From the NCBI RefSeq assembly GCF_002775205.1, contig NC_036454.1:29374783-29438782 (forward strand): a stretch of 64,000 nucleotides of DNA, given 5' to 3'. The DNA is from Xiphophorus maculatus (Eukaryota; Chordata; Actinopteri; Cyprinodontiformes; Poeciliidae). Below, piece by piece: positions 9,081 to 62,800 of this stretch (position 1 is the stretch's first letter; every line of letters begins with the position of its first letter). The position numbers and the translations under genes were made by a program. The notes under the pieces are model-generated. The model was not told the origin of the DNA and searched no databases. It was given only the letters and a program-made list of their open reading frames with translations.

Positions 9081-9116
9081 TCTGCTTTTGGAACTGCAGC
9101 CAGAAAAGACCTAAAT

Positions 9117-11142: not shown

Positions 11143-11186
11143 GAGTGTTACATCGGTTTTACATTTGTCAAACCGATGTAACACTC
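11143..11186. repeat. Perfect 17-bp inverted repeat, second-unit copy
   Basis: Same hairpin as at 1060-1103, without a mismatch in the stem. Confidence 0.75.
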
Positions 11187-13308: not shown

Positions 13309-13422
13309 CCATCTTTATGGTGTACCGGTGACAAGCCTGACAAAAAAACTGGTAGTCCTTCCTTTGCGGAACGGTCATGTTGTTTGTCCTCAGTTACATG
13401 ACCACTAATTTACTTAATATGA

Positions 13423-17281
<3,859 letters not shown>

Positions 17282-19150: not shown

Positions 19151-19197
19151 AATGCATGTAGACCTCTGCTTTTGGAACTGCAGCCAGAAAAGACCTA

Positions 19198-19530
19198 AAT
19201 CCTTAACAAGTTTAAAATGAACTAACTACTAACTAAGTTTAAAAAGACCTAACTATTTACCACAAGTTTAAAAAGACCTAACTACTTAACACAAGTTTAA
19301 AATGAACTAACTACTTAACAAGTTTAAAAAGACCTAACTACTTACCACAAGTTTAAAAAGACCTAACTACTTAACACAAGTTTAAAATGAACTAACTACT
19401 AACTAAGTATAAAAAGACCTAAGTACTTAACACAAACAAGTTTAAAATGACCTAACTAGTAACCAAGTATGAAAAGACCTAACTATTACGTTTAAATTGA
19501 ACTAACTACTAAAAAGAACTACCTTTACTA
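19198..19530. repeat. AT-rich minisatellite (copy 2)
   Basis: Same word set as at 9117-9590 but about 140 bp shorter, and richer in tttaaaaagacctaactac with fewer tataaaatg variants. Repeat number and order have changed since duplication. Confidence 0.83.
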
Positions 19531-38800: not shown

Positions 38801-41800
38801 TCAATCAGACATGCACTCTAAATGACCCCAGCTACAGCAGGCTCAGTTTATTAGTCAAAGTAGTTTCAAGCGTTTCTGACTAAGGCAGTGGTTCCCAAAG
38901 ATTTTCTGGGCCCCCTATGAAATACAATTAAATTCCCCCCCCCAAAAAATATCAAATAGGCACACACATCGTTCAACCAGACAAAACCTAAACACATATT
39001 TTGTTTTCAAACTCCACTGAAGTTTTTTTTTTTTTTTTATACTCTTTATTTAACATTTTTCATTACAATAAAACATACAACACACACACACAGAACTAGG
39101 GGCACTGATACTTAGATAAGTAGAAAGACAGAAACAAAATAATACATTACAAGATGATACACCTTGTTATGCTTCCTTGCTCTTGTACGTCAGCCATTTA
39201 GACCAGCGTTTGTTGTAAGAATGTCCTTTCATACGTAAAAGATATGTCAGTTTTTCCATGGAGTGAATCTCCTCCACGACATCTCGCCAGTGGTTCAGCT
39301 GTGGTGGGAGTTTCTTTAGCCAAGACCGTGTAATTGCTTTTTTGCTTGCAATTGACAGAACTTTAAAAAGGTACTGATCTTCTTTTTGAAACACCTTTTC
39401 GGACATCAACCCCAGCAGAAAAATTCTAGGGTCCTTGGGGATGACATACCCCAAAATTATCCCAGTAGTCTGACAGATTTCATCCCAATAAGTTGCCAAC
39501 TTTGGGCAGGACCAAAATACATGAGTGGTTGGCGTTCTGATGGCCACACTGTCTCCAACATTGCTGTTCTTCTCCTCTATGTCTACTAGTAATTTGAGGT
39601 GTAATAAAGTATCTGATTAAGCACTTCCATCCGAATTCCTTCCATCTTTTGGAGCTAGTAGATGTCTGTTGTGTCACACACATTGAAAGCCAATCATCCT
39701 CTGTAATTATTACTCCCAATTCTCTTTCCCATTTAGACTTAATGTTCAAGGTGTTATTTCCATTATGTTTCTGCAACCCTTTATATAGTTTGGAAACAAT
39801 TTTACAAGGGAGGCGAGTATAAGCTTTCGTAAAAATGTTCACAACAGCATTACCTTCTGGAGGAACACCTTTTTTTATTTTTGTATTGTAAAAATGTCTT
39901 ACCTGGAAATATTTAAATAAATCTCTGTTCTCAAGATTATAATCCCTTTTCAGTTGCTCAAACGTTTTAAAGGTGTTACCTTCTACAAACTGGCACAAAG
40001 CCACAAGTCCTCTATCTTTCCAGCCTAAAAAAGAAGAATCTAATTCTCCTGGCCGAAAGTCAGAGTTACAGGAGGGCCACATCAGGAGTCCAGTGACATC
40101 CGCCAATCTGTATCTATCAACCACTTCCTTCCAGATTAACAATGTGCCTTCAACTATACCATTCCCATTTTTGTCTGTGACTATTTTACCTCCCAGACGT
40201 GTTTGGGGTTGGGCCCCACCCTGCCTTAGTTCTATCTGTTTCCATCCGGTCTCCATTTCTGGTGAGCACCAGCAGACCATGAATCTCATCTGAGATGCAT
40301 AATAGTATTCCCTCAAATTTGGAAGGCCCAGACCCCCCTGGTCCCTGTTAATTTGGAGTATTTTAAATTTTATTCTTGGTCTGGTCCCGGACCAAATAAA
40401 TCTGGAGATCAACCTGTCCCAGGTATGGAACTGTGCGCTAGATATTCTAATAGGCAATGACATGAAAAGATATAAAAATCTAGGAAGCAGATTCATCCTG
40501 TCAAGAAAACTGGCATAGGGTGTGAGATCTTTCCGGGTGCATGCAGAAAAGGTGCATAGAGGCCTGAGAGAAAATAAGTAATCTTGTAGTTTGATTAAAA
40601 GCTAATTAAATTGAATATGAAGGAATAGTAAAATGAATACAAGTAATCACATAATAACCTTCTGAAATGTATTATCTGAAATGTGATCTGTAATGATTTC
40701 TGTAATGAATTAACTGTGGAAAGATTATGGTTGATGAATTATAATAAGTAAGAGATGTGATTGATTGTTAACTAAGGATCAAACTTGTGATGATGTGAAG
40801 TTGTAATCATTTGAAATTAATTCAAACAGGTTTAACAACAGATTTAATGTGTTTAATGAGCTATAATACATAATAGTGGGTTATAGAAAAAGAGAGGAAT
40901 ACAGCACAGTCCTGAAACAGGAAATGTCGCAAGCAATTCTGAACAGATGGTCAGAGCGCACAGGATGGTTGGAGTGTTGAGTTTGGCTGAAGCAACGGAG
41001 AAAGGGGAAGTACGGGACTTTCCACCATGGTCAGCAGAAATAGATTGGGCAATGTGAGGACTTTTTCATGAGATACAGCAGATGTGGAGAAAGTCACGTA
41101 GGCCAAACCTCCCCATACACACACATGGTGGAGAGATGCATAAAAAGGGGCTGAAAAGAGGAACCAGCCGTTCCCAGTCCGACGGCGCAGAAGGAGAGAC
41201 AACTTGCTGAAGCAGATTGAGCCACGGACCGCACTTCAGAACCACGGGGGAGCTCGGACTTCACACCGCCAAGAAAGGACTGGGTTCCATCGCCCCATCC
41301 CTGGTTCTTCATTCGATCGTCGGTCTCGTCTCAGCCCAGCAATTACAAACTCTGCAACAAGACTTGAAGGAAGGACAAAGCTCCCTTAGGGATGAGGAAC
41401 TGGGTTTTGCAAAAGGATTCGGACTCGTTCTGCTTTGTTTCCTTTCTAAAGAGGGTTTTTTCTACACAAGGCAAAGACCTCAACCAAGGATGCTAGAAAT
41501 TCCTGTTGCCAAAGATCCACCATCGTCTGGGTATGAGTTGAGTCTGCTCATTGAAATTCCATTTCAGAACTTGCGACTTTAGTCAGGGAAAAGAGGACAG
41601 GGTAGTATGATTGTACATGTAAATTTTATTACACTGTTTTTGAATTATTTACGATTGATTATTGATTTGTATGTCGCATATCCCTGCTTAAGCTTGCTTA
41701 ATAAATTTATACTATAAAATTCTAAAGAGGTTGGTGGACATTGGAATTAATAGAGTCATTTAATCTTCGTTCAGTTCTTTTAATTAAGGTAAAACTAATG

Positions 41801-44800
41801 TACATGATTCCAGTAAATAGGAGGCTTCATAATTTCCTTTGGTGAGATTAAATAATGACCCTGGGACTTACATCTAAGTCACTAAACATAATCTAGCCGG
41901 TTCCAAGTGCAAGTTATGATTTAGAAAGTGGGCTACCGTTAACAGAAGTGGTTATTGGAATTATGCAGCTGTGAGGGCTACTCAGCTGATTGTTTCTTAA
42001 CTGTAAAGGGTCATAACTTCTGGATTGGAGGTAGTTAGAGCTAGACGAATCACTTTCGCCACCAGTTTAAATAGATCATCTCTTATAGAGTACTTTTAGG
42101 GTAATACCCAGGTCTCAGAGATTTTCCGGACCTGTTAGACAGAGAACTGGTCAGTAGGCAGCCCTGTGAAGTAGTGAGGAGTGGGCGGGGCTGACTATTG
42201 CAGGATAACCTTCATGGCGCCCAACGTGGGGCGGCGCACAACTGAGTAGGCGGGCCCCAAAGACACCAAGTCAGTGAAAACAGATGCGAGACTCTGAATA
42301 GCTCACTTGGGTTTCTAACTCTTAGGGAAGAGAGTTAGTGGTGACTGATAAGGCCATCAGTCACAACCCTCGCAGTAACTGTATAGCATACAGGTGAGGG
42401 AAAGCTTCTACTGAGGATAGAATGACCAGATCCAGACAGTGAAGCCAGTAGCCAACACAGCCTGGACCCATCCCTACTCGAAAGCGCAAAGAGAGGCTTT
42501 GGGGGATAGGCGACTCGAAAGACAAAGACAACTATGAGTGAAGAAGAAGAAAGAGGGGAACTGGAGCCCCTACAAAAGCCAGCAATGGAACAAGAGGCAA
42601 GCAACAACAGCCGGGATGGGAAGAATCATCAATCCCATCTTTCCAAATCTACATTATCGCAATTTCCTGTAATGTTGATATTACTTGGTGATGGATTGGA
42701 ATCCTGGACTGAGATAAATAAAAAGATGTTCTTTGATTCTCACTTCACCATGAGCAGGGACGTGGCTCGGAGCCCAATGGAAATCATAGTGCAAAAACGG
42801 ATATACTATTGCACCCAGCTTAGACACGGCCACCGACTGGGAGTCGTCAGATGCCCAGTGAAAGTGGCTAGGAAGTCGGAGGTTAGAGGATGGCTGGAAT
42901 GGTTCGCTGACCTCCTTGAAGGATGGGTGGATGGTGAGCTACGAATTGTCCACAGCCCCTCCGAAAAGTATGACCGCGTAGTAAAAACAGCTACCTTGGC
43001 GGCGGGCATCGATGGAATCCTGGTGGACCCAAACGTCAAGGGGGTGAGCCAGTACAAAGACTACACCGAGGCCATGCAGAGACTTTCAACCTACAAAGAA
43101 GGCAAAGAAAAGGAACAAGCCCTCGAAGAGGCAAGGTCGGAGGTGGCTGAGCCTCCGTCCCGACTGCCCAGCAGAGCCCCGACACCGACTCGCCCGCAGA
43201 AGCAACCTCCGAGGGATCTGATAGACCTGACGGCCGGCAGCAACGACAACGATGGCGGTGACAGCGGCGACGACAGCAACAACGATGACGACGGAGGCAT
43301 CCCTGCTCAACCGGGTCCATCGCGGAACGAGGACATCCCACCTGCACCGGCCAATGAGGAAGACCCCGAGGGACAGCTCGTCGGCAGTCTCACCGAGGAG
43401 CAGTGGGAGCAAGCGGTCAGGGATTGGTCCACTGAACGGGGTCGGGAGCTCGGGTTTCATCCCCGAGTCCACAGCACGGAGAAGAAGCATCCACTGCAAC
43501 CTACGGAGACCCCAGCAGCCAGCAGTTCCGACGAGGACGAGGAGGAATCGGACGAGGAGCAGCGGGACCCCGGTCGCCCTAAGAAGAAGACTCAGAAATC
43601 GGACACCTGGAGGATGGCCCGAGAATTAGCCGAAATACCACCGGGGGCCAGCAACTTTAGACTGCAGACCGGCCTCCGGATTTATCAGGTTATTGGAAGA
43701 ATATGGGATCTTGAGGGTGACGGACTGATTGTGTTCACCAATGACAGATACAAGATCCACAATCGAAAGTTCAGACGCAGCCTTGAGGACCAAGCAGGGC
43801 AATATTACCAAGCGGATTCAAAATTGCTAGAAGCCACCTGTAGCCCAAAGACAAGGGGAGAAGTAGTCTTGATGAACGGCTATAGTCTCCCTTATGGAGC
43901 TGTAATCCTAGTCCCGATTGACGTCTACCGAAAAGGAGAGAGTTTGGAGGAATATCGGAAGAAGATGTGGCATGGACTCGAGCGGGGCCTGACAGCAGCC
44001 AGCAACGAATGCATGAGAAGAGTGATAGTGAGTGTACAAGGACTGAGATCGCCAGATCTGCCAAGGGACACCGCCAGATCAATCGCGGAGAACGGAGTGG
44101 TGAATATAGCCAGGACCAACAGTCATTTCTTTGTGTTCAAAGAAGTGGTGGTGGTGATTGACCCCCGTCTGCATCGACTCCGCACTGAGCAAGGGGTGAA
44201 ATTGGCAGCTGAGATGGAGGAGCAATGCCGCATTAGCCATCCATCGCAAGAAATCAAGAAATATCCCTTAAAAATTCCACAGAGTGAGGTTTCAAACACC
44301 ACCCAGATCGGTAAAGCCAAAGCCGTGCAGCCACCCAGGATAAAGATAAAGGAGGCACCTGTTGAACCAGAGTTCTCCGCAGCAAGGTACGTTAAGGAGT
44401 TCTCGTTTGAAGAGAGCCGCAGTGAACTGAAAAAACCCAATGCGGGAAAAGTTAAGAATAAGCAGCCGACGGTCCCGAAAGAAGAAGGACCGATGAAACC
44501 AGCTAAGATTCGACCGCTGAACTCCCCCAGGAGAGAACCTCTTCGACAACAGCAGTATGAGGACATCAGCGACTCGGAGGACGAAGAGGAGCAACCGGAG
44601 ATCGAACATCCTGGAGAAGAAGAAGAGGAGAGCGATCACGGCAGCGTCTTCTCCGACCCAAAGCAACTACCGGCCGAGCATAAGACACTCCGAACAGGAC
44701 AGCATCGGGGTAAGAAGAAAGAAATAGAAACCTTTGACATCGAAGGATCTTCTGAGAGACTGGCAAGAGACGTGACCTGGGGTCCCGTGCAGGCTAAGGA

Positions 44801-47800
44801 CGGACGGTGTACGTATGTACCAGAGGTCGGCCAAACCGAGTACCAGATCCCGGCAGAATGGGCCAGCAGATTGGGAGACCGGGTGCGGCTCGAGGTGGAA
44901 GCGACAATCGGAGAATGGGCTAACATCCTGATGACACCATCCTGCTCCACTCTGACAGCACACTATTCCCTGACTACCAACTTCAGGAATGCATACATTG
45001 GAATAATGTATGATGTGATGCTGCGACGACTGAAGAAAGCCGCCTTCAAATACTCCAGGGAGGCTCGACAGAAGCTGGACGAAGTGTCGGCTGATGAAGA
45101 GGAACCTCAGGCGACGTCTTCGGAGCCAGGACCACAGATCCCAGTGAGACCACCAGGGGCGTTGGCTCAGCTACCTGCCGCTAATACGGGACAGGACGCT
45201 TACGCCGAGCTGAAGAATCTAAGGCTGGTGATTAGGAGTAAAAACGCAGACGAAAACAATGAGGAGTATCTGAAAGATGTTTGGCCAACCGTGTTGTCTA
45301 CCACCAACCACGAGGGAGCCAAAAAGTTGTGGCTGACCAGCGTGACCTCGGACCCGATGGTTGGAACAGATTCAGCACAGAGCAACTATGAAAGGCTGGT
45401 GTTGGAGGACATGGATGATGAAGAGTCCCAGGTGAAGAGAGCTAGAGGACGACTGGACAAGGGAAGCCGGTTGGAACCGCTGTGGCACACACTTAAACAG
45501 ACCGTTTCCCCTGCGAGATATGTGAAAGTACTGCGTGAGGTGACAAAAGGACGCAGAGGGGAGATCGTGTTCGTGAAGTTGCCAGTGAGAAGCACGACGG
45601 TCGCTCAGATGGATGTAGCGGTGCAGGGATTCGACCTGGAACAACAGTACTACGAGGACAAAAGGAAGAAGGAGGCTAGCCAACCGGCAAAGCCACCTGG
45701 AAGGGTTAACATCAGACAACCAGCCAACTTCCAGGGTAGACCGTTCCAGCAAGGAGCACCGCCATCCAACTTCCAGAGCAGACCGTTTCAACAAGGAACA
45801 CCGCCATCCAACTTCCGGAACCGGCCGTTCCAGCAGAAACCACCAGGACCGCAAGGGAAACCGACCAACCCTCCGGCTTCATCAAACCAGCCAGGAAAAG
45901 GTCAGTTCCTGACAGATGAGGAGTATAGGAAATTGAGCCAAGAAGAGAGGACGGCCCTCCGTGAGTCCCGTAAAGCCGGGGCCGGAGGGTCACCAAAGTA
46001 ATGGCGTCCAGGTCGCGGGTCGTTTTAGAAAATGCCTACTGGGAAGGGGACGAAATCTACGCTAAAGTGGAAGGAGTGCCCTACCTAGTGGACACCGGAG
46101 CGGAGGTGTCGATGACCCGCAAAGACCTAAAAACAGCAGGACACCTGAAGGTTCAGTTTGCCAATGGAAAAATAGAAGAAATGCCATATGGAACCTGGAA
46201 AGGAGTAGTATGGGTGAAAGGTCCCTACAATCTCCTCACAGTAAAAGACTTAGACGAACTCAGTAAAAAGAAAGGCACACATCGCCGACTGGAGCGAAGG
46301 CTGACAAGTTTGAAAGCAAGATTGGTGAAAGTCGGCCCGACTCAAGCAGGGTCAGAAAAGCAAGACTGGTACAAACCGGTCGACATACCAACGGTGACAG
46401 AACAGAAACTTGAAGAGAGTGACTTCTCCCCGGCTGGGAAAGAGGAGCTACGTGAAATCATCGCTACAGCACAGGTAGCACGGTTCAAAAATGATTGTGG
46501 AGATTTGGGCCCAAAGTTTGTTCATCACATCGAAGGTGGGGTTCATCCACCTGTTCGGCAGTACCCGTTGAACCCAGGAGCAGTCGAGGAGATGGACAAG
46601 ATCGTGAAGGAGCTGGGCGCCCTAGAGATCATCAGAGAGGAGCTCAACCCGATCACCAACAGCCCCATCCAGGCGGTGAAGAAACCTGAATCGGCTGGAG
46701 GGGGTTGGAGGCCAGTTATCAACTTCAAGGCCCTGAATCGGAGAACAATAGCAAACCGAGCCAGTTTGATCAATCCACAAGGAGCGTTGAAAACTCTTCG
46801 AGTCAAAAAGTTCAAGTCCTGCATCGATCTAGCCAATGGATTTTTCTCTCTACGCCTCGCTAGACAGTCGCAAGGTAAAACTGCATTCACTCACAAAGGC
46901 AAAAGCTATGTGTGGCAAAGGTTACCCCAGGGATACAAGAACTCCCCAAACGTGTTCCAGTCAGCAGTGATGGAAGTATTGGGGGACGTGGGTGCAACTG
47001 TGTACATTGATGATGTTTTTATTGCTGATGACACAGAAGAAGAACACCTAGAGAGGCTACGAAAAGTGGTTGAAAATCTCACCAAGGCAGGTTTGAAGCT
47101 AAACCTCAAGAAATGTCAATTTGGACAGTTCCAAGTGAACTATCTGGGTTTCCAAGTCACGTCGGACTTGGGACTCTCGGATGGGTACAGAGAAAAGCTG
47201 ACGAACATTCAACCACCACAGTCAGAAAATGACTTGCAGAAAATATTGGGACTGTGCAACTATGTCAGAGACCATGTACCCAACTATCAGAAATATGCCA
47301 AACCTTTGTACCACTGCCTGAGGAAAAGTGAGGATGACGAGAAAGACGGAAAAAGACCCTGGGTTTGGACAGCAGCAAATCAACAGAACCTAGAGGAACT
47401 GAGAAGGGCCATTCAAGCAGCTGTGAGATTGGAACCAAGGAGTTTGTCAGAAAGACTGGTGGCAGAGATCAGCTGCGAGAATGACGATGCCATGATCAAA
47501 GTGAGTAACGAAAATGGAGGCTTGGTTACCCTGTGGAGTTACACCCTAACTTCTGTTGAAAAGAAATACCCGCAGGAAGAGAAAGAGCTAGCGGTGTTAG
47601 CCCGCTATTGGGGTGTGCTGAAAGATTTAGCACAAGGACAACCAGTCAAAGTCATCACACAAAGCCAAGTTCACAAGTACCTAAGAAAAGGAACTGTGGA
47701 AAGTACTAAAGCAACCAATACTCGGTGGGGAAGATGGGAGGACATCTTGCTGGACCCGGAGCTTGAAATTGGGCCAGCACAACCTACCAGTAAGAAAAAA

Positions 47801-50800
47801 CCACAAGAAACACTTGAGAAGCCAGGACAACCGGAATGGACAATCTACACCGATGGATCCAGAAAGGGGTCCGACCAGTCGGCATACTGGGGATTTATTC
47901 TGAAGCAGGACGGCAAAGAGAAATGCCGCCGGAAAGGAAAGGCCCCCGGTAGTGCTCAAGCCGGAGAAGTGACGGCAGTACTGGAAGGATTGCTGGAGCT
48001 GGTGAAAAGGAAAATCAAAAGTGCCAGGTTAGTAACCGACAGTTACTACTGTGCTCAGGCCCTTAGAGAGGACTTGGCCATTTGGGAAGAGAATGGTTTC
48101 GAGACAGCAAAGGGCAAGCCAGTGGCACACAAAGACTTGTGGAAAAAGATTGCTGAGCTAAAACTGCAGTTGGAAATAGATGTCGAGCATCAAAGAGCAC
48201 ACACGCATGAGGGAGCTCATTGGCGTGGGAATGATGAAGTGGACTGTTATGTCCAACAAAGGAAGATCGTCTTTGTCGGTACCGAGAAGTGGGACAGAAC
48301 TCCCAAAGGACGGGAGGTCCCAGAAGAATACGTGGTCGAGGTCGTGCGGAGCGTGCATGAGGCCCTTGGACATGCAGGCGTGCGACCTACCCGTAAGGAA
48401 CTGGAGGAGCAAGACCTTTGGATCCCAGTGAAACAAGTCCAACGCGTGCTAAGGGACTGTGAAGTGTGTGGTCAATACAACGCAGGTCGCCGAGGGCAGC
48501 GGATGGATGGGTTGTCCATCAAAAGCACGGTCCCCTGGGGCTCAGTCTGCATGGATGTTGCAGGACCCATGGGGATAACAGGAAGGAGAGGTGAGAAGTA
48601 CCTCTTAGTGCTGGTGGATTCTATGTCGGGGTTTGTAACTACAAAAGCAGCCAGGAAAGCAAACGGCAATAGCGTTGTCGGCATGCTGGAACAAGTATGC
48701 AGTGCCCTGGGAATCCCGAAAGAGCTGCGCACGGACAATGGGACTCATTTCCGTAATTCACAGGTTGACCAGTGGTGTCAGAAGTATGGAGTAATGCGAG
48801 TTTACTCGCCACCCTACACCCCACAAGCTAACGGAGTGGTGGAACGAGCCATAGGGTTAGTGAAAAGCTGGATAGCTAAAAATGCTAACACCAACAGTTG
48901 GAGCACCCAAGCGGTGGAAATAGGGCAGGCCCTGAACGACAGAAGCAGAGCCGAAAGACCCGCCCCTGCGATGGAACTCAACCAACGGCCGTTCACCACG
49001 AAGGAAGTGGGGCGGGGCTCCAGCGACAAAAAGGAGAAGCTGACGCCCAGAGTGCCATTCCGAGAGGGACAGCGCGTGTGGGTCAAAGCAAGAGAACAAC
49101 CTGTACATGCAGCAGTAAAACCCAAGTTTGAGACAACTGACATCGTCAAGAGAGTACTGGATAGGAACACAGTATTGCTGGAAAGAAAAGGGATCCAAGG
49201 AGTCGAGCAGCTCAAGCCGGTTCCTGACTAAAGCGAAACAGAAGCCGGTGAAATGGCCAGTGAATCATGTACCATTCCACCCTATCTCGGACTGGCCACC
49301 GTGAAAGGGGTGGTTGTAATTAGAAGAACACCTTCAGGGATTTGGGCAGGACGAGCCCTGAAGAAATTGGATTGGGCCAAAAATGGAGTCCTGTCGGAAG
49401 ACAGAGAGATGCTGGTTTGGAGGAAAGCTAAAAGCGGCTGCCCGGTTTGTTTAGCCGACCACCATCTTCCCATTATCTGGGAAGGACCGGGCCGTGAGAA
49501 GCCAAGACACCAGGAGGCTACCGCAGAGATGCTACAACACCTTCGCGTCTCCCCAGTCACGGTATTGAACAACACAGTCTGTGGGAACTGCCGAGTGGGT
49601 TACCTGCCCCGGCTTAAGTTGGAAACCCAATGGGGGTGGCTCCAGGAAAAACCAAGAACTTGTTATTGCACGTGGGACGGAGATGAGCTACACCACTGCC
49701 CTGTGTGCAAGGAACAGCTGAAGAGTGGAGAGGTAACACTGACAGGCGAAGCTGAAGGGTGGCAAGTGACAAGGTTTTACAGCTCGCTGCGATATTACAG
49801 AACCTATGGGCAAGTGCAGCCGAACTATGGGAGCTCCATACCGATAATATTACCAGGACCTTCCGCCCCTCCGAACACTCCAGAGGAACTGGACCCATGG
49901 GTGTGGAAGAGGGAAGAAGGGCCCCATGATGTCCTGTGGGATTCTGTTCAAGCCGCCTGGCCATATGACGCTGCTAGAGCATCCCTGTCATGTCCACCAT
50001 TGAATGCCAACCACTCTCCGGTGGTCTTCCGGGTACATCGGCCTCACGCATACCAACCATCAGCTGAGGAGCTAAGTGCACTCCCAGATGATGCCCGAGA
50101 GCAAGCCGTTAACGGTGGGTGGACAGGCCCCTGGGAACTAACCACCTGGGCACATCTAATTTTGGAGGTCATCAATGACTGCACGATACCCATAGTGGAT
50201 CTGCCGGATGTACCAAGAGAAGATGGGGTGCGCAGCTCGGATGTGTATTACTACACCACAGAGGTGGAAGGATGGGGCAGCAATGCGGTGAGACCAAAGG
50301 AGAAGTCTTGCCTGTACTGGGTCACAGCGGAATCCCAGTTTCGGGATGGAGTTTTGCAACACCCAGGAGGAGTGGCTCACAGGGCGAGTACGCCCTCTGA
50401 TCCTAGCACCTCCTGTCGAGTCCAGCTGTCAGTGCGCATGATCACCGTTCCCTATAAAGGGATCTACTCAGTCGGAGCAGCCATCAAAGTGGTACCAAAC
50501 GAGCAGACTTACGCCACCGTGTCCAGTACGGAGCCGGAGCCTCCCAAGAAGAAACCCAAAACTCACGCCTGGCAGAAGCTTGCCTCAGCATTTCCATGGA
50601 GAAAGACAAGCCAAGACTGATGGACGCACCGGAAGGAGGAAAACGAGTCGTCAAGTCTGAAGGTCAGCAAAAAACCAAAAAGCGAAAGGGGAGACAGTGT
50701 TTTGTGACTAGATTGTTCAAAGTGGGGGTTGGAGTCTCATCGGGACTATCAGACAGAGGCCCGTTTTTAAAACTCCCTACCACCTCCATTCTACTAGATA

Positions 50801-53800
50801 TGCCAAGAGAAGATTTCACTGTTTCCAATCCGCTCACTGAGGCCTATTTTCTTAAGTATCTCATATATCTCCGACCCACCAATTTCCAAAACGTAAAAGA
50901 GGTGGGGGAAAGCGAAGAATACACGACGCCCCCTGCCATGAAGCCACATTTATTTATCCCTACCGCACCGCCCGCTTGGAAAGGAAGAGGATCCGACAAC
51001 ACGGTTAATGTTGCATCAATCTCCCCTATGTGCCCAAGATCTCTACCATGGACTTTTAATACAGTGTATTTCAGGTTACAGGGGATCGAGCTACGGATTA
51101 GGTGGGGTCCCCATTATCTTGAACCACTGCAAGGACTGTATTGTGAAATTTCACTTAATGACATGATGATTTGGACCACTTCACCAAGTATGGCGAAAAC
51201 CATAGTAAGGAGGGAAATAAATCCTGAATGTTATATATTTAATAACACCAAGCTTCCATTAAAATTGGAAATAGATAGGGTCTACCCCAATCCACCACAC
51301 CAGAGGATTTTTACTCCGTCAACCTGGGGGTACCGCACTAGACTAACTCTGCATGGACAATCATTGTACACCTACGTCTCAGTACCTGCCCCAATAGGGT
51401 ACAAACACGAATCCTGGCAAGACCAGGCGCTGAAAAATGGAACCGCCCCAGGCCCATTCCCTAGGCCGGACTACTGGAGGGTGTTCCACTGGAAGTGGGT
51501 GTGGAGGGGGTTGGAGCCTGATTTACCCTACCCCTCTCCCATATATACAGCCCTACAGCAGAGAAGGGCCACCAGACGGGTTGGAAAGAACCCTGCCAAC
51601 CAAGGCCACCTCAACTCTTTGAGAAAAATCTGTACAGCGCCTGATACAGCGGATCCCAGAGAAGCACTAATCTGGCCAGGATGGATGCTATCGGCATGAG
51701 GCGCCGACCTACAGACCCGGAGTTGCTGGATGTTACATCGGAATCAGACAGCTCTACTGACACCGACGACGACTCGGAAATCTCTAACGAACCCTTGCTA
51801 CGGAAAACGACTACGATAACCAGAAAAACCCTATGCCTGAAAGGGCTGCTAACGCTTCTTGCCCTGCTGTTTGCTGCTGCTGTTCTTGCTACTATCTTCT
51901 ACTTCATCGGAGTTGGACCGTGGTATCTTACGCATACAAGGGTCACCTATGGACATTCTAAGTACGCTAACTTCAATTGTTGGAATACAAGCACTACGGC
52001 TATTTTTGTACCATGGAACAACGACACATCTGTCCAGAACCGAACCGGGCTGTTCGCCAAAGACAACGGGAAAAAGTACGTGGAGCGCCGAGCCTTCGGA
52101 TTGAACGACTCCACTCTGGACGACCTTCTGAATCGCACCTGGGAGATCTACAACTATGACTTCCTCGAAACTGGAGTGCTCTGCTGGATACGGGTTCTGC
52201 GAAACAAAGAACGACGGACCGTCAGATGCAACTGGATTCACCCGGACCGAGGTATGCCAGAATGGCATTGCAACATGGCTTGTCGATCGCTGCTATTGAT
52301 GCCAAGTCAAGGGTACTGGGATACCGAAGTAGTATACCCAGCCCCACACAGGTCCTCAGGCTGTCGGGCCTGGCTTCCACGAGGGGAGTTTTGGGGAGAT
52401 ATCCACCTGAACTGCAGAAAGGATGACATCATCCCAACAGCACCGACGGGCAACTGGACCTATCGAAATGCCTCCCGAGGTAATCTTCCAGTCAATACAA
52501 CGATGCTGCCTACATCAGCCAATTTGACCAACATGACGGCTTTCCTGATCAGACAAGGACCTAGACGGTTTATGTATGAGGAGGAGCAAAAGCACTGTTA
52601 TAGACACCACTTTAGTTGGTTAAATCCTTGCCTCTGGAATAAGTTTGTGCAATGTGCAGGACGGAATTACATAGTTACAGCCATAGAAGAATACTGGGCT
52701 GATTTGTGGCACTCTACACGCACAATCCGTACAGAAGTTGAAACCTGGCTGAACAACTCATTCCCATGGACATACATAGCCAAAGACCAGACGTTCTTTA
52801 TGGGAGACTTTCCGGAGGGAACGGTTCGCTCTCATACTGGGTTGGAGGAGCTACACATTGCCAATTTGCGTACACAACCCCTTCCAACTCCTGATGACCT
52901 TCTGAAAGTTCCTAGAAATGACTTTGCAAAAATTGACAAATGTGTCGCCAAAAGAATTTTTGAGAGCCTTAATGACACCTGTTGGAGGAAAACCCACTCA
53001 TCGCCACGTTGTGACCTCTGGCAAACGGGGAACGCTCTTCACTCCACCTGGAGGTACAACTGCCCTGATCCTGAAAAAGCACCTACTGCCAAATGGGCTT
53101 TGCGAGCCTGGTACGAGGATTACACTCGAAATTGGGACTACGAGTGGTGGGGACTCCAACAAGATGAGTTTGAAGCTTGGGTAACACCATGCCTCACGGA
53201 ATCAACAAACTACTGGGTCAAGTACCAGTACATCGCCACGGTTTATTCGAAAGACCGCATGATTTGGCCTGGAGTTTTTTGGAGACCTGACAGTTATGTC
53301 AACCCGAGACCTTGGCGCATGACCTGTAGAAACACAACAAGACGGGTCCTCGAATGCACAATCAGTTTGGCCAGAAGACCCTGCCAAACCGTCCGAGGTT
53401 GGGAAAGCTACTGCCAGGAACATTATGCAGATGAGTATGACACTCACTCTTCTGAGGTTACTTGGCGGAAAATCAATGGCACATGGCGGAGGGCCATAGT
53501 GAGCGGACGGACATGCACCGACGCAATCCTAGGATATCATCTCCAGAAGCGCAAGAGCATTCTTGGGCTACCCGTTCCGTTCATTCCAAATCCCCTTATA
53601 GCCATCGCCGAAGGACATGCTTTTCGGAAAAGTCTGTGTGAAGGGAACATAGACTCAGGGTTTGACTGGGTAGGACCCAACCTGTTGTATTCCAATCTCA
53701 CCTGCTCCACCACTATGGAGCATTGGCAGCAATGTGGAGAAGGCTCTAATAGACATGACTGTTTCTGGTATGAGACTATGGGAGCAACTTTGGTGGCCGT

Positions 53801-56800
53801 CGCCACCGACGTTGTGGAAGAAATTGCTCATGTGGTAGAAGAAGGCCTCAACATTGTTGAACAGTGGCTGCTAGACGCTTTGAGCGTGCTATGGCCATAT
53901 CTCTTAGGACTCCTGGGCGTCGCCGTAGCAATACTCATCGGCAAAATCGTCTTGGAGGCGTGGCTGAAAGCACTTTGTCGTTGCAAAAAGAGGAACTACC
54001 AGCCCCTCCCCCCTAAGGAGGAGCCTACTTCTGCATAAGAGAGAGCTGCCGTGTGCCTGCGAGCCATTCAACCTTCATCGCAGCTGCCGACAGGATCTGA
54101 TCCAGAGCGACCATCATCTCACATCATGGAAAACAACTCTTCGACCAACTCATCAAATCCCAACTCACTTTTTGCACCGATTCAAGTGAGTACCATTGAG
54201 CACTTAGGGATTACCCTGGCCTGGGTAGTCTTCTGCCACACCGGTCCTTGGCCCAAGGGACATCCTATGAGGATCTTCGTCGCGCTACAAGGATATGCCA
54301 AGCTTATCCTCCGTCCAATCATTCTCCACAGATGGGGGTTGGCTTCGTCCCTCTTTGCCTGTTACTTGATGGGCCGTACTCGCATCAATTGGCGCAGGGG
54401 CGTTGTGGTCTGCCTGTGGCTCATCACCGATACCGCAGCCCTGATACTGGAATTGGTCCTGGGGGGCGCACAAGCTACACGAACCGCCCCATTTAAGATT
54501 CTCACAGCCATTCTAGAAGGGCTTTTCGCAGTATCTATCCTCATCTACTTAGCGCGCCAGGCCTTGGCTATCAAGGGTCGAGGACGGCGAATTTGGATGC
54601 AAAAGTGGGTAATTCTGGCTCTTTGGGCAACGGTTTGGGGGATCCTGGTGGTCCTCTACTGGCTTCATGAGACCTCGGACCTCGCCATTGTTGTCTGGCT
54701 GATGACCTACGCGGCAATATTCCATGATTCAGCTCATGTCTATGATCGAGGTGAACCAGCACCAGATCATGACATTTCGGCTCCTGTGATTAATTCACCT
54801 TGGCTCGCAAAACAAGCTGGCACACGGCCTTAAAACCAGCTTACTCTCTCAGCTTTCGCTTTAGCATTTTCGTCATTGTAAGTACATGTAGTTAATCGAT
54901 AACCACTAATCATGAAGTTACCTGGGTTACTGTTTCTCCTCAGGCATCAACCTGCTGTGTGGGATGTGGGATCACCGCAGAATCCTATGGATTCATTTGG
55001 GTGGCATCGTCCGCCCGCTGGTGTCACAAATGCGTGAGCAGCCATTTTAATGATGTAACGGCAATTCTCTGCGCCACAGGGCTGGAGGATTTGCCCTACA
55101 TAGCGGATTCCACATCTAGATCCCTGGAACGGGTGCACAAAATCGTGTGGACCTCTGCATTTGGCCTAGCCGACGACGACTTCCCAGCATCTCCATTGTA
55201 TACGGGGCTACGGCTGCCCGTAATTCATAAGTTGTGGGAACACCAACTTACTCGGCAATGCCTCCCAACTTTACATCTGTTGGATGGCCGAATTGTGGCG
55301 GTGGGCGACTATCTTCCGCCTACACGTCCCGTGTCTCCGGATTTGTTTATCGACGTCGGATGCCAAGCCAGCAGTGCGACTAACGAGAGAGGTACCCAAA
55401 CTGAGAACCTCAGTTCATCTCCCCAAGCATGCCAGACTGAGGACATCCTTTCCCCTTCATCTCCATCACCAAGTGATATGGATTTCCAGGATCTGCTGGC
55501 AGAGTTGGACGGCTACTGCAACAATCCATCAACGCTGCCAGACTTCGGCATGGACTTGCCTTCGCCTCTGCCGCCTCCGCTGGAACGTTCCACCCTTTCC
55601 GTCTCAGGTGACTCTACACTTGACACCGATTTGGGCGCAGAACGCTGGCTTTCTCCGCCATCCAATCTGTCGGAGTATGCGGTTGTGGATTCCTGGACAC
55701 CTTCATTGTCTCCGGTTACCTGCTATGAGCGGGACATCCTCACTATCACTTGTGATGATGGACTTGATCTCTTTTGACTTTGGACTCTGTGTTTTCTGCG
55801 AAGCACCGTCCGATCTCATGGAGGGGGTGTCAAGAAAACTGGCATAGGGTGTGAGATCTTTCCGGGTGCATGCAGAAAAGGTGCATAGAGGCCTGAGAGA
55901 AAATAAGTAATCTTGTAGTTTGATTAAAAGCTAATTAAATTGAATATGAAGGAATAGTAAAATGAATACAAGTAATCACATAATAACCTTCTGAAATGTA
56001 TTATCTGAAATGTGATCTGTAATGATTTCTGTAATGAATTAACTGTGGAAAGATTATGGTTGATGAATTATAATAAGTAAGAGATGTGATTGATTGTTAA
56101 CTAAGGATCAAACTTGTGATGATGTGAAGTTGTAATCATTTGAAATTAATTCAAACAGGTCTAACAACAGATTTAAAGTGTTTAATGAGCTATAATACAT
56201 AATAGTGGGTTATAGAAAAAGAGAGGAATACAGCACAGTCCTGAAACAGGAAATGTCGCAAGCAATTCTGAACAGATGGTCAGAGCGCACAGGATGGTTG
56301 GAGTGTTGAGTTTGGCTGAAGCAACGGAGAAAGGGGAAGTACGGGACTTTCCACCATGGTCAGCAGAAATAGATTGGGCAATGTGAGGACTTTTTCATGA
56401 GATACAGCAGATGTGGAGAAAGTCACGTAGGCCAAACCTCCCCATACACACACATGGTGGAGAGATGCATAAAAAGGGGCTGAAAAGAGGAACCAGCCGT
56501 TCCCAGTCCGACGGCGCAGAAGGAGAGACAACTTGCTGAAGCAGATTGAGCCACGGACCGCACTTCAGAACCACGGGGGAGCTCGGACTTCACACCGCCA
56601 AGAAAGGACTGGGTTCCATCGCCCCATCCCTGGTTCTTCATTCGATCGTCGGTCTCGTCTCAGCCCAGCAATTACAAACTCTGCAACAAGACTTGAAGGA
56701 AGGACAAAGCTCCCTTAGGGATGAGGAACTGGGTTTTGCAAAAGGATTCGGACTCGTTCTGCTTTGTTTCCTTTCTAAAGAGGGTTTTTTCTACACAAGG

Positions 56801-59800
56801 CAAAGACCTCAACCAAGGATGCTAGAAATTCCTGTTGCCAAAGATCCACCATCGTCTGGGTATGAGTTGAGTCTGCTCATTGAAATTCCATTTCAGAACT
56901 TGCGACTTTAGTCAGGGAAAAGAGGACAGGGTAGTATGATTGTACATGTAAATTTTATTACACTGTTTTTGAATTATTTACGATTGATTATTGATTTGTA
57001 TGTCGCATATCCCTGCTTAAGCTTGCTTAATAAATTTATACTATAAAATTCTAAAGAGGTTGGTGGACATTGGAATTAATAGAGTCATTTAATCTTCGTT
57101 CAGTTCTTTTAATTAAGGTAAAACTAATGTACATGATTCCAGTAAATAGGAGGCTTCATAATTTCCTTTGGTGAGATTAAATAATGACCCTGGGACTTAC
57201 ATCTAAGTCACTAAACATAATCTAGCCGGTTCCAAGTGCAAGTTATGATTTAGAAAGTGGGCTACCGTTAACAGAAGTGGTTATTGGAATTATGCAGCTG
57301 TGAGGGCTACTCAGCTGATTGTTTCTTAACTGTAAAGGGTCATAACTTCTGGATTGGAGGTAGTTAGAGCTAGACGAATCACTTTCGCCACCAGTTTAAA
57401 TAGATCATCTCTTATAGAGTACTTTTAGGGTAATACCCAGGTCTCAGAGATTTTCCGGACCTGTTAGACAGAGAACTGGTCAGTAGGCAGCCCTGTGAAG
57501 TAGTGAGGAGTGGGCGGGGCTGACTATTGCAGGATAACCTTCATGGCGCCCAACGTGGGGCGGCGCACAACTGAGTAGGCGGGCCCCAAAGACACCAAGT
57601 CAGTGAAAACAGATGCGAGACTCTGAATAGCTCACTTGGGTTTCTAACTCTTAGGGAAGAGAGTTAGTGGTGACTGATAAGGCCATCAGTCACAATAAAT
57701 AAATCTGGAGATCAACCTGTCCCAGGTATGGAACTGTGCGCTAGATATTCTAATAGGCAATGACATGAAAAGATATAAAAATCTAGGAAGCAGATTCATC
57801 CTCACTATTTCCATTCTAGCTGTGAAGTCCAACAATAACCCTGACCAGGCTGACAAGTCTTTTTGTATGTTTTCAGTAAGGTTATCAAAGTTCAAACTAA
57901 GTAACTCATCCAAATCTTGAGAAATAAATACTCCCAGGTATTTTAGCTTTTTGGCATCCCACTTAAGTCCATAGTTCTTTCTTATGAATTTACTAGGGGA
58001 GTAGTTAATTGCCAGGACCTGTGTTTTTGTGATGTTTAGACTGTAGCCCGACAGTTGACCAAACTCCGTTAGAGCTGACATAACCTTAGGGAGCGTTATA
58101 TCTGGGTTTTGGAGGTATGTGATTACATCATCTGCAAAAAGGGCAATTTTGTGTTCAGTATTTGCAAAACTAATTCCCTTTATTCCATTATCCTCTCTAA
58201 TGGCCTGTGCCAAGGGTTCAATGAATATTGCAAAAAGCGATGGGCTTAGACAACAACCCTGACGGGTTCCTCTGTGTAGTTGGAAGCTGTTTGTTAGGTG
58301 CCCATTGATTTTAACCCTGGCCCGTGGTTCATCATAAAGTGACCGCAAGCACCTAATAAACTGGTTATTAAAGCCCAGGCGTTCTAGTACCTTATATAGA
58401 AAGGTCCAGTTGACCCGATCAAAGGCCTTTTCTGCGTCTAGACTAATTAATGCGGCGTTGAGACCCTGCTTTTTGGTTTGGTCTAAGATATGTAATGTTC
58501 GTCTTATGCTGTCATGAGTTTGTCTGCCTTTGATGAATCCCGTCTGGTCTTCGTGTATTAGGTCTAACAAGTAATACTCCATTCTCCGAGAAATTATTGA
58601 TGTAAAAATTTTATAATCGACATTCAGGATAGAGATTGGGCGATATGATTCACAGTATTCAACATTTTTCCCCTCTTTAGGGAGGACAGATATTACAGCC
58701 TCTCTCCAAGATGGTGGGATCTCAGCTCTGCTCAATGTCCAGTTCAAAGATTCGAGCAGGACAGGAGAAAGCTCCTTCCTGAACGTCTTGTACCATTCAT
58801 TTGGAAATCCATCGCTGCCTGGGCTCTTATTACTTTTCAATTGTCCAATAACTGTATCTAATTCTTTCTGCGTAATGGGAGCAGATAGAGTTTTGTTTTG
58901 GATTAGACCAAGTGAGGGTAGATCCAAAGCTGCCAAATAATCCTCAATAGCAGTTACGTTAACTGGTCCTGGAGCAGAATATAGTGTTTTAAAGTAATTT
59001 TCAAAGGTCTTGTGTATTTTATCCATGTCATAGGTTAAGTTACCAGTAGAGGATTCTCTAATTTTGGTAATCGAATGCTTCAAATGGTGTTTACGAAGTT
59101 GTCTAGCTAAGATCCGTGTAGCTTTTGGGCCTGATTCATAAAATGTTTGTTTGCAGAAACGTAATTTTTCCTCAAGTTCCTCAAGTATCATATCATTTAT
59201 TTTGTTTTTAGTTTTTGTTATTTGTTCTGAAAATCCTCCATTATTAGTCATTTGCTGTTTTAATTCTAATTTCCTCAATGTTTTTTCCAATTCATCGTAT
59301 TTTAACCTTTTTATTTTTTTCAGATAAGCAGTTCTAGAAATTAGTCTCCCTCTCATTACTGCCTTGACAGTGTCCCAAACTAAGGTGGGATTTACCTGCC
59401 CATTATTATTGTCCTTTACACACTCCGTTATTTCTTTTCTAATTTCCTTTGTTGTGGTTTCATTATTAAGAATGCCTATATTTAGGCGCCATAATGTTGT
59501 TTTAGGCCTATTATACAAACCGATGGTCAGATAAATAATGTTGTGGTCTGAAATATCCGATGTTCCAATTAAGCATTCCTTCACTTTAGATCTATCAATG
59601 GTGTTCATCAGAAACAGGTCAATCCTGGAGTGGACCTTGTGAGTAGAAGAGTAATGAGTAAATTCTCTTTCTTTAATATGAAGATCCCTCCAAACATCAA
59701 ACAGGCCCATCTCCCTGATCAGGATATTTAGATCTTTTGACCGACCAGTTTTTTGTTTCTTATGGCTAGTTGTATCTAGGACATAATTAGGGATTGTGTT

Positions 59801-62800
59801 CCAGTCTCCAGCACAAATAAGAACTCCTTCACTAAATGAGATAATGGTATCAAAGAACATCTTCAAGAAAGCCCTGTCGCTCTCTGGCGGTACATATATA
59901 TTAGCAATTGTGACCACAACATCATCAATTCTCCCCTTTATTATAACAAATCTGCCCTCTTTATCTCCCTTCTCAGATATCAATTCAAAGTTCAATGAAT
60001 TAGAAATTAGGGTGACTACCCCCCTCTTTCTACTATTTCTACAGGAGCTATAAAACGTGTTCAGGTAACCAAATGACTTAAACTTGTCATGTTCTTGTTT
60101 AGACATGTGTGTCTCTTGTAAAAGAGCGATTTGTATCCCATCTTTCTTCAATTTAGCTAAGACCCTTTTTCTTTTCACTGGACTATTCAAACCGTTTACA
60201 TTCAAGGAAGCAATTTTTAAATTATATGACAGTAATGTATAGAAATACCTTGATTGATTTGGCCCCTGAATCCAGAACACGAACAATAACAAAACAAAAC
60301 AAAACAAAACAGTAACAAACTGACTTCCAAGGTGAGGAGAAGCTCCCTCTTCTCACTCATGACCCCGTTGGCAAGTCGAGGGTTAAACCTCTCGAACTGA
60401 GAGGGCCCAAAAAGGACAGTAGAAGCGCCTTTAGGAAAAAACACGTCCATCCTATTAGTCCAACGTTGAAAAAAAAAACAACCAGTGTCCTCTCCCACCA
60501 AATAGAAAATCAGAGCCCAGTCAAAATAATGCTGCGTTATGTTATGTTATTCTGCCTATTTTCACTCGGCTATGCTCCGCTGGAAATCCTGCAGTTTGTT
60601 CTTGGCTCTCAGCGCAACCGCAGCGCCGGTGCTATCCGCCGGCTGCCAGCCCAGCCGCTCCCGGAGACTCCACTCCGCTCTGGATCCACCGTCAGCTGTT
60701 ACCGGTTCCTCCGACTGGATTCCTCGTCTCTTCAGCTCGTTGTAGGCTTCCCGAGCGCTGGAATATGTGCGGGTTCCTGATTCCCAGTGGATCCTCATGT
60801 TGGTAAACGGTGTTTGGAAGCGGATGCCTTTCGCTTTGAGCGCTTTCTTGATAACGTTATATTCTCTGCGCTTCTTCACTATCTCAGGTGCATAATCGTG
60901 GTCGAAGTGAATAGTAGAAGAGCCCACCTGAATCTTGCCCTTTTTCCACACTTCTCTTAAGATCTTTTCCTTTGTGGAAAATTCCAGAAAATTGACAATA
61001 ATCGCCCTCGGTGGTGAGTCGGGTGGGGGTTTAGTTGCCAGAGTGCGATGTGCGCGCTGTATGTTCAAGTCCAGGTCCTCCGGTAGTTGTAGCTGGCTTC
61101 TCAGAAACGTCTCGATATACTGTGTAGTTGAGTTCCCCTCCTTTCCCTCTGGTACCCCAAATACACGGACGTTGTTTCTTCTGGAGCGAGACTCTAAATC
61201 AAGCACCTTAAGCTGTGTTTTCCTCTGTTGTTCGATGCAGAAGCACAGCGCCTCGGTTGCCTCCTTTGCCCAGGTCTCCACTTGATGAACGCGGGCCTCC
61301 GCCTCGTCAACCCGCTCTGCCAGGCCCTGGACCTCAGTAGCAATATTGTCCAGCTTACCGTTGATCTCATGTCCCAGATGGTCAATATTTTGTTGCAGCT
61401 TTGCGTTATCACCCTTTAGAGCAGTCTTCAAATCATCGATAGCCTTAATTATTCCCTCCGAGTCCATGTTCGTTCCGGGGCTCTCAGCTTCCGAACTAGC
61501 CACGTTAGCTTGCTTCAGACACGTGTTAGCCTGAGCTACTTGGGCACTTTTATCCTGAGCTTTGGGCATTTTTGTCAATTTTTTATGGCTCGACATGTTT
61601 CTCCTTCCGTTCACAAATTATTTTATCTAAATAGTGACCAGATTAACGAGTTTTGAACGGAGTATTTTGAAATTAAGGTGGGAGAGAGGCTCTGACGCAC
61701 CCGTCTACTCCATTTGCCGACATACACTCCAAACTCCACTGAAGTTTATTTCACCACTTCAGGTTGCAACAAAACACACTACAAACCATCTTTACAGTGA
61801 AACACTTTTGTGTAATTGGTTTTATTTTTTTCATCTCCCCCCACCCCTTCCCTCCAACTGCAATGGCACGACGACCCCCTAGGGGACACGCCCCACATTT
61901 TGGGAACCACTGGTCTAAGGAAACCCATCAGATCGCATGAAGTTATTGACCTGCAGCATACACCGCTCCTGGACCAGCAGGGGGCGACAGTGGAGAGGAA
62001 AAAAACTCTCCTTTAACAGGAAGAAACATCCAGCAGAGGTGGACAGACGTAAGACAGATGTAGCATTCAGGAGGACTGATGAGCTCCTCTGCCTTCATCC
62101 ATTTAATGTCCTTTAATTTAACTTTCTTTTGGGATCAATAAATAATTTTTGAATTAGAATTACATTTTCTTCATCCAGTCAGTTGTTTATGCCTTACAGC
62201 TTTGACTGTGTCTGCAAAGTACTGAGCATAGAAACAAAGGAGTGACTTCAGTACTTATCTGTGTCAATGTTGCCAACTTACCATTCTGCATGCGATCTCT
62301 GGTAAGCCAGATGGCAAGTCCATCTCCGTTTAGGTTTTTCTTTCCGATGCCATGGATTTTAAAGTGAACTCTAAGTTCCCAATCCCTCAAGACGAACGGC
62401 TGCACCACAAAAAAATGAAGAGCAACAGAGGAGAACATGACCCTACCATACACATCAAAACCAATACTGGGGAAGGTTTTCTGCAGTGAAACTACAGTAC
62501 ATGTGTAGCAGCATATTGTGGTGGCACGGTTTGTCAGCAGCTGTGACAGAATGACGCAGGAAGTGGTTGGCTAACGTGGAAGCATGTGATGCAGCTGCAG
62601 ACTTACGATCCGGCTCCACACCGCTCCCTGTCTGCTCTGCTGGTCTGGGGTCAGCCTCACATGGTCAGGCGTCACCATGGCGGTTCCCATCAGATCCCAC
62701 TGGGAGGAGCTGGAGAAGCCCAGTCCTGCAGAAACAGGAAAGGTCGCCTTTCAACTGGAGCTGCACCCTTAATACTCGCTCTTTTTTTTTTTTTTTTTTT

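What the first reader, a model, noticed from the sequence alone, without database searches (positions are those of the whole stretch)
40499..57694. A 17-kb, seven-ORF spumavirus-like provirus
LTR to LTR it is 17.0 kb, well beyond the usual retroviral size, with gag, pol, env and four further open ORFs of 235-455 codons. PBS type, Pol, Env topology and 3' genes point to the foamy-virus side, but the gene content is unlike any spumavirus I know. It may represent an undescribed lineage.
Basis: partly seen in the sequence, partly recalled or inferred. Interest (0 to 1): 0.9.

Follow-up and report, generated by a model that had tools for sequence, protein, structure and literature searches.

The report
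Young 17-kb fish foamy-like provirus
This is a very recent copy, with its genes unbroken, of a large foamy-virus-like retrovirus of a kind already described in ray-finned fishes, including swordtails; what is unusual here is how its right-hand end was joined to the host DNA.

Summary
The provirus is real. Terminal repeats of 1,867 bp with 2 mismatches enclose gag, pol, two frames between pol and env, env, and two 3' frames, all open. Pol is nearest to foamy viruses among solved structures and sits in a clade with Poecilia, Larimichthys, Zoarces and other fishes. It is not an undescribed lineage. PMC5512871 (2017) described 17.4-kb ray-finned-fish FLERVs with the order gag-pol-acc3-acc4-env-acc1-acc2, similar gene sizes and a tRNA-Lys PBS. 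A 2025 preprint (PMC12642411) reports intact, polymorphic 17-kb endogenous foamy viruses in Xiphophorus. ORF3 (acc3) has relatives at 94%, 42% and 23% identity with six invariant cysteines.
New here: the exact tRNA-Lys PBS lies inside both terminal repeats. So the 3' end carries LTR + PBS + leader (151 nt) + 2 nt, then a 105-bp duplication of its target, a LINE-1 ORF2. The best reading is uncoordinated integration of viral DNA with an overextended U5 end. Whether other copies share these ends is untested: the genome search could not be reached (20 attempts). No ORF4 relative was found.

The parts
40499..42214 (+). 5' LTR proper (TG...CA, 1,716 bp)
   Evidence: direct repeat with 2 mismatches to the 3' copy; ends at the PBS
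42215..42232 (+). primer binding site, complementary to tRNA-Lys1,2
   Evidence: exact match of the 16 bases searched; the tRNA assignment of this sequence is recalled and agrees with the tRNA-Lys PBS reported for AciFLERV/AliFLERV
42233..42365 (+). leader stretch that is repeated, with the PBS, at the 3' end of the provirus
   Evidence: 151 of 151 bases (42215-42365) identical to 57544-57694
42341..42364 (+). 9-bp hairpin with GGCC in its loop (dimerisation-type hairpin, inference), at whose foot the repeat ends
   Evidence: fold of 42340-42440, which also holds a second hairpin: z -2.88, 0 of 200 shuffles as stable
42534..46001 (+). ORF1, putative gag (1,155 aa; no CCHC box; three 14-aa repeats near the C-terminus)
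   Evidence: no Pfam match above its cut-off and no PDB match at E<=1, so the label rests on position
46001..49231 (+). ORF2, pol (1,076 aa): protease DTGA, RT YIDD, RNase H, integrase HHCC + DDE; its ATG overlaps the gag stop (TAATG)
49253..50620 (+). ORF3, acc3-type gene (455 aa) with six cysteines (C110, C113, C137, C139, C149, C152) invariant over four aligned rows
   Evidence: relatives at 94, 42 and 23% identity
50596..51699 (+). ORF4, acc4-position gene (367 aa)
   Evidence: open frame; no relative found
51681..54038 (+). ORF5, putative env (785 aa; hydrophobic segments at about 49-83 and 729-766; 15 N-glycosylation motifs; 27 Cys)
   Evidence: no PDB sequence match at E<=1; label rests on position and topology
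54126..54833 (+). ORF6, acc1-position gene (235 aa from its ATG; three hydrophobic segments)
   Evidence: relatives not searched
54944..55777 (+). ORF7, acc2-position gene, probably a spliced 3' exon (acceptor-like pyrimidine tract + CAG ends at 54943; no early ATG)
   Evidence: the splicing is inference; relatives not searched
55820..55827 (+). polypurine tract next to the 3' LTR
   Evidence: sequence
55828..57543 (+). 3' LTR proper
57544..57694 (+). second copy of PBS + leader beyond the 3' LTR (overextended right end)
57695..57696 (+). two extra bases between viral end and target duplication; the first also equals the next leader base (42366), so only one may be untemplated
40394..40498 (-). 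left copy of the 105-bp target duplication (LINE-1 ORF2, antisense)
   Evidence: identical to 57697-57801; corresponds to L1 ORF2p residues 815-849
57697..57801 (-). right copy of the 105-bp target duplication

Best explanation
A young, full-length provirus of the acc3/acc4 clade of ray-finned-fish foamy-like endogenous retroviruses, in a poeciliid-like fish. It works like a complex foamy-type retrovirus. The LTR drives the genomic RNA; tRNA-Lys primes minus-strand synthesis at the PBS; Gag and a separately started Pol make and copy the particle; Env has a cytoplasmic leader with an N-terminal anchor. ORF3/ORF4 between pol and env and ORF6/ORF7 behind env are accessory genes. ORF3 probably folds around zinc bound by three cysteine pairs, and ORF7 is probably joined by splicing, as Bet is in foamy viruses. 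This copy entered an antisense LINE-1 with open ORF2 about 0.04 Myr ago by the LTR clock. The left end was joined at the authentic U3 terminus. The right end was abnormal: the viral DNA ran 151 nt past U5 into PBS and leader. The two ends were therefore inserted without coordination, which left a 105-bp instead of a 4-6 bp target duplication. Shown: anatomy, open frames, Pol kinship, ORF3 conservation, PBS in both repeats, 105-bp duplication. Inferred: gag/env labels, splicing, zinc binding, the order of events at the right end. The confidence given is for what the element is and how it works in the main; for the history of its right end alone I would say about 0.75.
For: Terminal repeats with 2 mismatches in 1,867 bp, about 37,000 years at the fish rate quoted in PMC5512871. 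Seven open frames. Pfam RT, RNase H and integrase core. Best PDB matches among the 60 of 284 shown: foamy PR-RT-RH at 282 and 271 bits, against 126 for 8r0s ('Enzymatic polyprotein'), 112 for Ty3 and 93 for the best 'p80' RT. For integrase, PFV at 58 bits against 47 for HTLV-2 (60 of 130 shown). Tree: window + Poecilia latipinna 100/100; clade of 11 rows (the window, six rows with fish names, four unnamed) 100/100; equine foamy virus on the near side of a 100/100 branch from six Ty3-like rows. ORF3 relatives in Xiphophorus hellerii (94%), on a contig of the same length (11,346) as that of Pol relative P0002 (42%), and in Syngnathus (23%). Exact PBS in both repeats. The right flank matches L1 ORF2p residues 7-849 and the left flank 815-899, so residues 815-849 (35 codons = 105 bp) are present twice. 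With one copy counted in the script the L1 frame reads through for 1,174 codons. Precedents: a 273-bp duplication at 1 of 15 XMRV sites, where one viral end was defective (PMC2857682, passages), and duplications of usually hundreds or thousands of bp next to the aberrant end in HIV, which can also be joined to further viral sequence (PMC5041404, passages). Gene set, order, length and PBS type agree with AciFLERV. The one Xiphophorus copy whose duplication is given has 6 bp, so 105 bp is abnormal for near kin.
Against: No AciFLERV/AliFLERV or Xiphophorus ERV DNA was at hand, so identity with acc1-acc4 rests on order, size and ORF3 relatives, not on direct alignment. ORF4 had 0 relatives among 637 candidates; ORF1, ORF5, ORF6 and ORF7 were not given to that protein search. 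In the codon-usage score, ORF3, ORF4 and ORF5 are the best of six frames, but ORF6 and ORF7, though best of the three + frames, score below all three minus-strand frames, except that one ORF6 minus frame is within 0.003 of it. No Pfam foamy Gag, Env or Bel match. No furin-type R-X-K/R-R site was found in Env. In the tree the equine foamy virus branch is long and its place unsure (tool's warning). The extended end terminates in ACA and mirrors the U3 terminus in 4 of its first 6 bases, against 2 of 6 for the PBS-bounded end (over 15 bases, 5 against 6), which mildly favours the extended end being a real LTR terminus. No other copy could be read.
Confidence: 0.87

Rival explanations
1. The long terminal repeat with the PBS inside it is the normal LTR of this lineage: minus-strand synthesis regularly starts downstream of the tRNA-Lys site, beside the leader hairpins.
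For: The repeat ends in ACA opposite TGT and at the foot of a hairpin. PMC5512871 words the AciFLERV PBS as lying 'on the 3' end of the 5'-LTR'.
Against: No tRNA-type TGG start lies at the repeat's end; the next TGG is at 42463. No complement of 9 nt or more between the repeat and the 115 nt behind it, as self-priming would need. The flank is not a flush 4-6 bp duplication, although the one near relative reported shows 6 bp. The same paper places the AliFLERV PBS 'after the 5'-LTR'.
Confidence: 0.12
2. The right end is secondary: a tandem or recombined provirus whose second copy was cut back to 151 nt, or an assembly error.
For: PBS + leader directly behind an LTR is what a tandem provirus would show (inference; the arrangement itself). 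The assembly could not be checked against reads.
Against: The 105-bp target duplication flanks the whole structure, so the 151 nt were probably there at insertion. A later deletion would not create it.
Confidence: 0.12
3. An undescribed retroviral lineage with its own gene set.
For: Only 28-33% Pol identity to equine foamy virus and to the next groups of hits; no Pfam match at its cut-off for gag, env or the extra frames.
Against: Same length, order, like gene sizes and PBS type as the FLERVs of PMC5512871, which lists Poecilia and Larimichthys among its hosts; 16 hits at 59-91% Pol identity, the named ones all fishes.
Confidence: 0.04
4. ORF4, ORF6 and ORF7 are chance open frames in a young element.
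For: No ORF4 relative; ORF6 and ORF7 score below all three minus-strand frames in the codon test, and ORF7 has no early ATG.
Against: 0 of 2,000 shuffles keep any of ORF3-ORF7 open. The five other frames hold 8-22 stops over ORF4, 9-16 over ORF6 and 5-14 over ORF7. Genes of like size stand in the same places in AciFLERV; acc4 was detected in 10 and acc1 in 12 of 27 ray-finned-fish FLERVs, acc2 in 5 of 27.
Confidence: 0.04

Closest known systems
AciFLERV and AliFLERV, ray-finned-fish foamy-like endogenous retroviruses (PMC5512871)
   Same: Length 17.4-17.5 kb; gag-pol-acc3-acc4-env-acc1-acc2 (AciFLERV) with similar sizes; tRNA-Lys PBS; young LTRs
   Different: Described from reconstructed ancestors because the single copies were broken; AciFLERV has acc1 twice; AliFLERV lacks an acc4 frame; the window copy is open throughout and has an overextended right end and a 105-bp target duplication
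ERV-foamy-Xeve / ERV-F.1-Xeve-chr-15 of Xiphophorus evelynae (PMC12642411, preprint)
   Same: 17 kb; gag, pol, env plus at least three frames, one with a membrane segment; identical or near-identical LTRs; poeciliid host
   Different: 6-bp target duplication (TAGTTA) and a captured C3 fragment in that copy; sequence not available for alignment
Mammalian foamy viruses (Spumaretrovirinae), e.g. equine foamy virus
   Same: Pol domains and best PDB sequence match; tRNA-Lys PBS; Env with N-terminal anchor (foamy topology recalled); frames behind env
   Different: 28% Pol identity; genome about 10 kb and no acc3/acc4; no Pfam spuma gag, env or bel match in the window

Membership tests
[quoted passage not shown]
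   17,196 bp between outer repeat ends
[quoted passage not shown]
   455/367/785/260(235)/272 aa against acc3 465, acc4 334, acc1 251-253, acc2 234 aa (env size not given in what I read); by order and size only
[quoted passage not shown]
   ORF3 has relatives in fishes; ORF4 none; AciFLERV sequences not held
[quoted passage not shown]
   exact match at 42215
[quoted passage not shown]
   clade of 11 Pols, 100/100, including Poecilia and Larimichthys; no named FLERV row in the tree
Spumaretrovirinae (foamy viruses) | Pol closest to foamy Pol | tested here: met
   best PDB matches for RT-RH and IN are foamy; the tree has 24 rows and no epsilon- or lokiretrovirus
Spumaretrovirinae (foamy viruses) | Gag without CCHC zinc knuckle; Pol with its own start | tested here: met
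   no CCHC; pol ATG at 46001 in another frame than gag. That these define the group is recalled
Spumaretrovirinae (foamy viruses) | Pfam spumavirus Gag, Env or Bel domains | tested here: not met
   no such match for the window's frames at E<=1, though the filters drop most weak matches; relative P0002 has a weak A9 protease hit, E 0.063, below its cut-off
Spumaretrovirinae (foamy viruses) | internal promoter in env and transactivator | not tested
   -
Epsilonretrovirus / lokiretrovirus | RT and IN tree position | not tested
   no such sequences were obtained; the paper on lokiretroviruses was seen as outline and abstract only

The most novel reading that the evidence does not exclude
The 1,867-bp repeat with an internal tRNA-Lys PBS is the regular LTR of this poeciliid lineage: its minus-strand start lies downstream of the PBS at the leader hairpins, so every new copy carries PBS and part of the leader at both ends. 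That would be a mode of retroviral replication not known to me.
Probability: 0.1. Interest if true: 0.75.

Novelty: new member of a known kind. Interest (0 to 1): 0.32.

Why it matters
It shows an all-open copy of a large fish foamy-like retrovirus; the 2017 description had to rely on reconstructed ancestors, while the 2025 preprint already reports intact copies in Xiphophorus. It fits the reported ongoing invasion of poeciliid genomes, gives acc3 a concrete feature (a six-cysteine core) to test, and may be a germ-line example of uncoordinated integration caused by a faulty viral DNA end, which in the papers I read was seen in cell culture.

Tried and rejected
Rejected: (1) that there is no PBS. 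At first no TGG was seen right behind the repeat; one search then found the exact PBS inside it. (2) LINE-mediated insertion of viral RNA: the 5' end starts at the U3 terminus, not at R (inference). (3) A 105-bp repeat already in the LINE: human L1 ORF2p has that segment once; a private duplication in this LINE is not excluded. (4) Self-priming by complementarity between the repeat and the 115 nt behind it: none of 9 nt or more.

Led nowhere: Rfam on 40000-58500, 0 matches at gathering score. Relatives in viral contigs with Pol, Env, ORF3 and a PBS pattern and in genome contigs with Pol: none confirmed. ORF4 protein search, none. PDB searches with Gag and Env, none at E<=1; with the ORF3 alignment only a chance-level match, E 0.23. 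tRNA scan of the window, none. The Pol protein search scored only the 8,000 candidates sharing most words. The tree used 23 of the 62 hits plus the window. The ORF3 alignment used 3 of the 4 hits; P0065 was left out.
Full report
WHAT IS THERE. Positions 40499-42365 and 55828-57694 are direct repeats of 1,867 bp with two mismatches (40832/56161 and 40848/56177). Between them lie seven large + strand open frames: ORF1 42534-46001 (1,155 aa), ORF2 46001-49231 (1,076), ORF3 49253-50620 (455), ORF4 50596-51699 (367), ORF5 51681-54038 (785), ORF6 (235 aa from its ATG at 54126) and ORF7 (272 aa from a GTG at 54959). ORF2 has RT, RNase H and integrase domains, protease DTGA, RT YIDD and an integrase HHCC motif; integrase D852 and D912 are invariant and E948 nearly so over 12 rows. 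The pol ATG overlaps the gag stop (TAATG); ORF3/ORF4 and ORF4/ORF5 overlap as well. For each of ORF3-ORF7, 0 of 2,000 base-shuffles stayed open.

WHICH KIND. By sequence, the PDB chains nearest to Pol are foamy PR-RT-RH (282 and 271 bits; then 126 for 8r0s 'Enzymatic polyprotein', 112 for Ty3, 93 for the best 'p80' RT) and PFV integrase (58 bits; HTLV-2 47). In the protein search, 16 of the 62 hits listed at E<=1e-10 have 59-91% identity to the window; those with a name are all fishes: Poecilia latipinna (91%), Zoarces, Syngnathus, Knipowitschia, Scophthalmus, Anarrhichthys, Larimichthys, Scortum and Xyrichtys. The only hit named as an exogenous retrovirus is equine foamy virus (28%). The tree (24 rows, rooted by choice on six Ty3-like rows) puts the window with P. 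latipinna (100/100) in a clade of 11 rows, fishes where named (six rows named, four not, and the window; 100/100). Equine foamy virus falls on the near side of a 100/100 branch, but its long branch makes its exact place unsure. Gag has no CCHC box. Env has one hydrophobic stretch after a 48-residue N-terminal part and one near its C-terminus. This is the foamy arrangement (recalled), but no Pfam foamy Gag, Env or Bel match was found and no furin-type site.

IT IS DESCRIBED. PMC5512871 (abstract, sections 6 and 8, and passages) reports AciFLERV and AliFLERV of 17,409 and 17,490 nt. AciFLERV has eight frames: gag, pol, acc3 (465 aa), acc4 (334 aa), env, acc1a/acc1b (253/251 aa) and acc2 (234 aa). 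[quoted passage not shown] The window copy has the same order and like sizes. PMC12642411 (outline, section 9 and passages) reports a 17-kb endogenous foamy virus in Xiphophorus evelynae with Gag, Pol and an intact Env and at least three further frames, identical LTRs and a 6-bp duplication, 4-11 complete copies per assembly at 18 places, and kin throughout Xiphophorus and its relatives. A review (PMC3814592, passages) already mentions endogenous foamy viruses of the platyfish. The finding's 'undescribed lineage' is therefore not upheld.

THE EXTRA FRAMES. ORF3 has relatives in Xiphophorus hellerii (94%), on an unnamed contig of the same length as that of Pol relative P0002 (42%), and in Syngnathus scovelli (23%); a fourth hit is a Xiphophorus hellerii protein named PHTF2, 96% identical over 16% of ORF3. 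Over the four aligned rows (window, P0063, P0064, P0066; P0065 left out) C110, C113, C137, C139, C149 and C152 are invariant, which suggests a zinc-binding core (inference). ORF4 had no relative among 637 candidates, so its conservation is not shown here. ORF6 has three hydrophobic segments. ORF7 lacks an early ATG and is preceded by a pyrimidine tract ending in CAG at 54943, which fits a spliced exon, as for Bet in foamy viruses (recalled). In the codon score ORF3, ORF4 and ORF5 are the best of their six frames; ORF6 and ORF7 score below all three minus-strand frames.

THE ENDS. The exact tRNA-Lys site is at 42215 and again at 57544, so it is inside both repeats (two matches against a mean of 0.17 in shuffles at up to 3 mismatches). 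The LTR proper ends in CA at 42214, and the 151 nt 42215-42365 recur without a difference at 57544-57694. Behind them stand two bases, the first of which also equals the next leader base, and then 105 bp that repeat the left flank exactly. The target is an antisense LINE-1. The right flank aligns to human L1 ORF2p 7-849 and the left to 815-899 (plus 1049-1138); the shared residues 815-849 are 35 codons, i.e. 105 bp. With one copy counted, the LINE frame is open for 1,174 codons. So the insertion duplicated 105 bp. Retroviral duplications are 4-6 bp. One of 15 XMRV sites had 273 bp, where a viral end had lost its CA. In HIV, aberrant ends most often go with long duplications and can carry further viral sequence. 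I conclude that the U5 end of this viral DNA was overextended into PBS and leader and that the ends were inserted separately. The overextension may have come from a minus strand started downstream, or from plus-strand synthesis running on around the circular intermediate; the data do not choose. A lineage-wide long LTR is the bold rival: the outer end reads ACA and mirrors the U3 end in 4 of 6 bases (2 of 6 for the PBS-bounded end), but over 15 bases the PBS-bounded end is as good (6 against 5).

AGE. Two differences in 1,867 bp give about 37,000 years at 1.46e-8 per site and year (rate as quoted in PMC5512871; computed). Gene conversion could make it look younger.

LIMITS. The own-genome search was unreachable (20 calls), so no second copy was seen. 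Gag and Env labels rest on position and topology.

Noticed in passing
57697-61614 and 39480-40393: Antisense LINE-1 with an ORF1 (L1 RBD domain, 60562-61614) and an ORF2 that would read through for 1,174 codons without the provirus: a young, possibly active LINE-1.
   Followed up: partly
1-9431 and 10084-19524: Tandem duplication of about 10 kb at 98.4% identity, each copy with a 283-codon frame; the first frame has no Pfam match at E<=0.01.
   Followed up: no
9104-9584 and 19188-19513: Short, diverged tandem repeats within both copies of the 10-kb duplication.
   Followed up: no
45720-45845: Three tandem 42-bp units near the gag 3' end (100, 86, 71% to the first), coding for 14-residue repeats.
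   Followed up: partly
55284-55847: A 187-codon ATG frame overlaps ORF7 in another frame and ends just inside the 3' LTR.
   Followed up: no
P0065, P0066: A Xiphophorus hellerii protein named PHTF2 carries a piece 96% identical to ORF3, and the Syngnathus ORF3 relative ends in two C2HC zinc-finger stretches (PF01530): possible gene-model fusions or domain gain.
   Followed up: no
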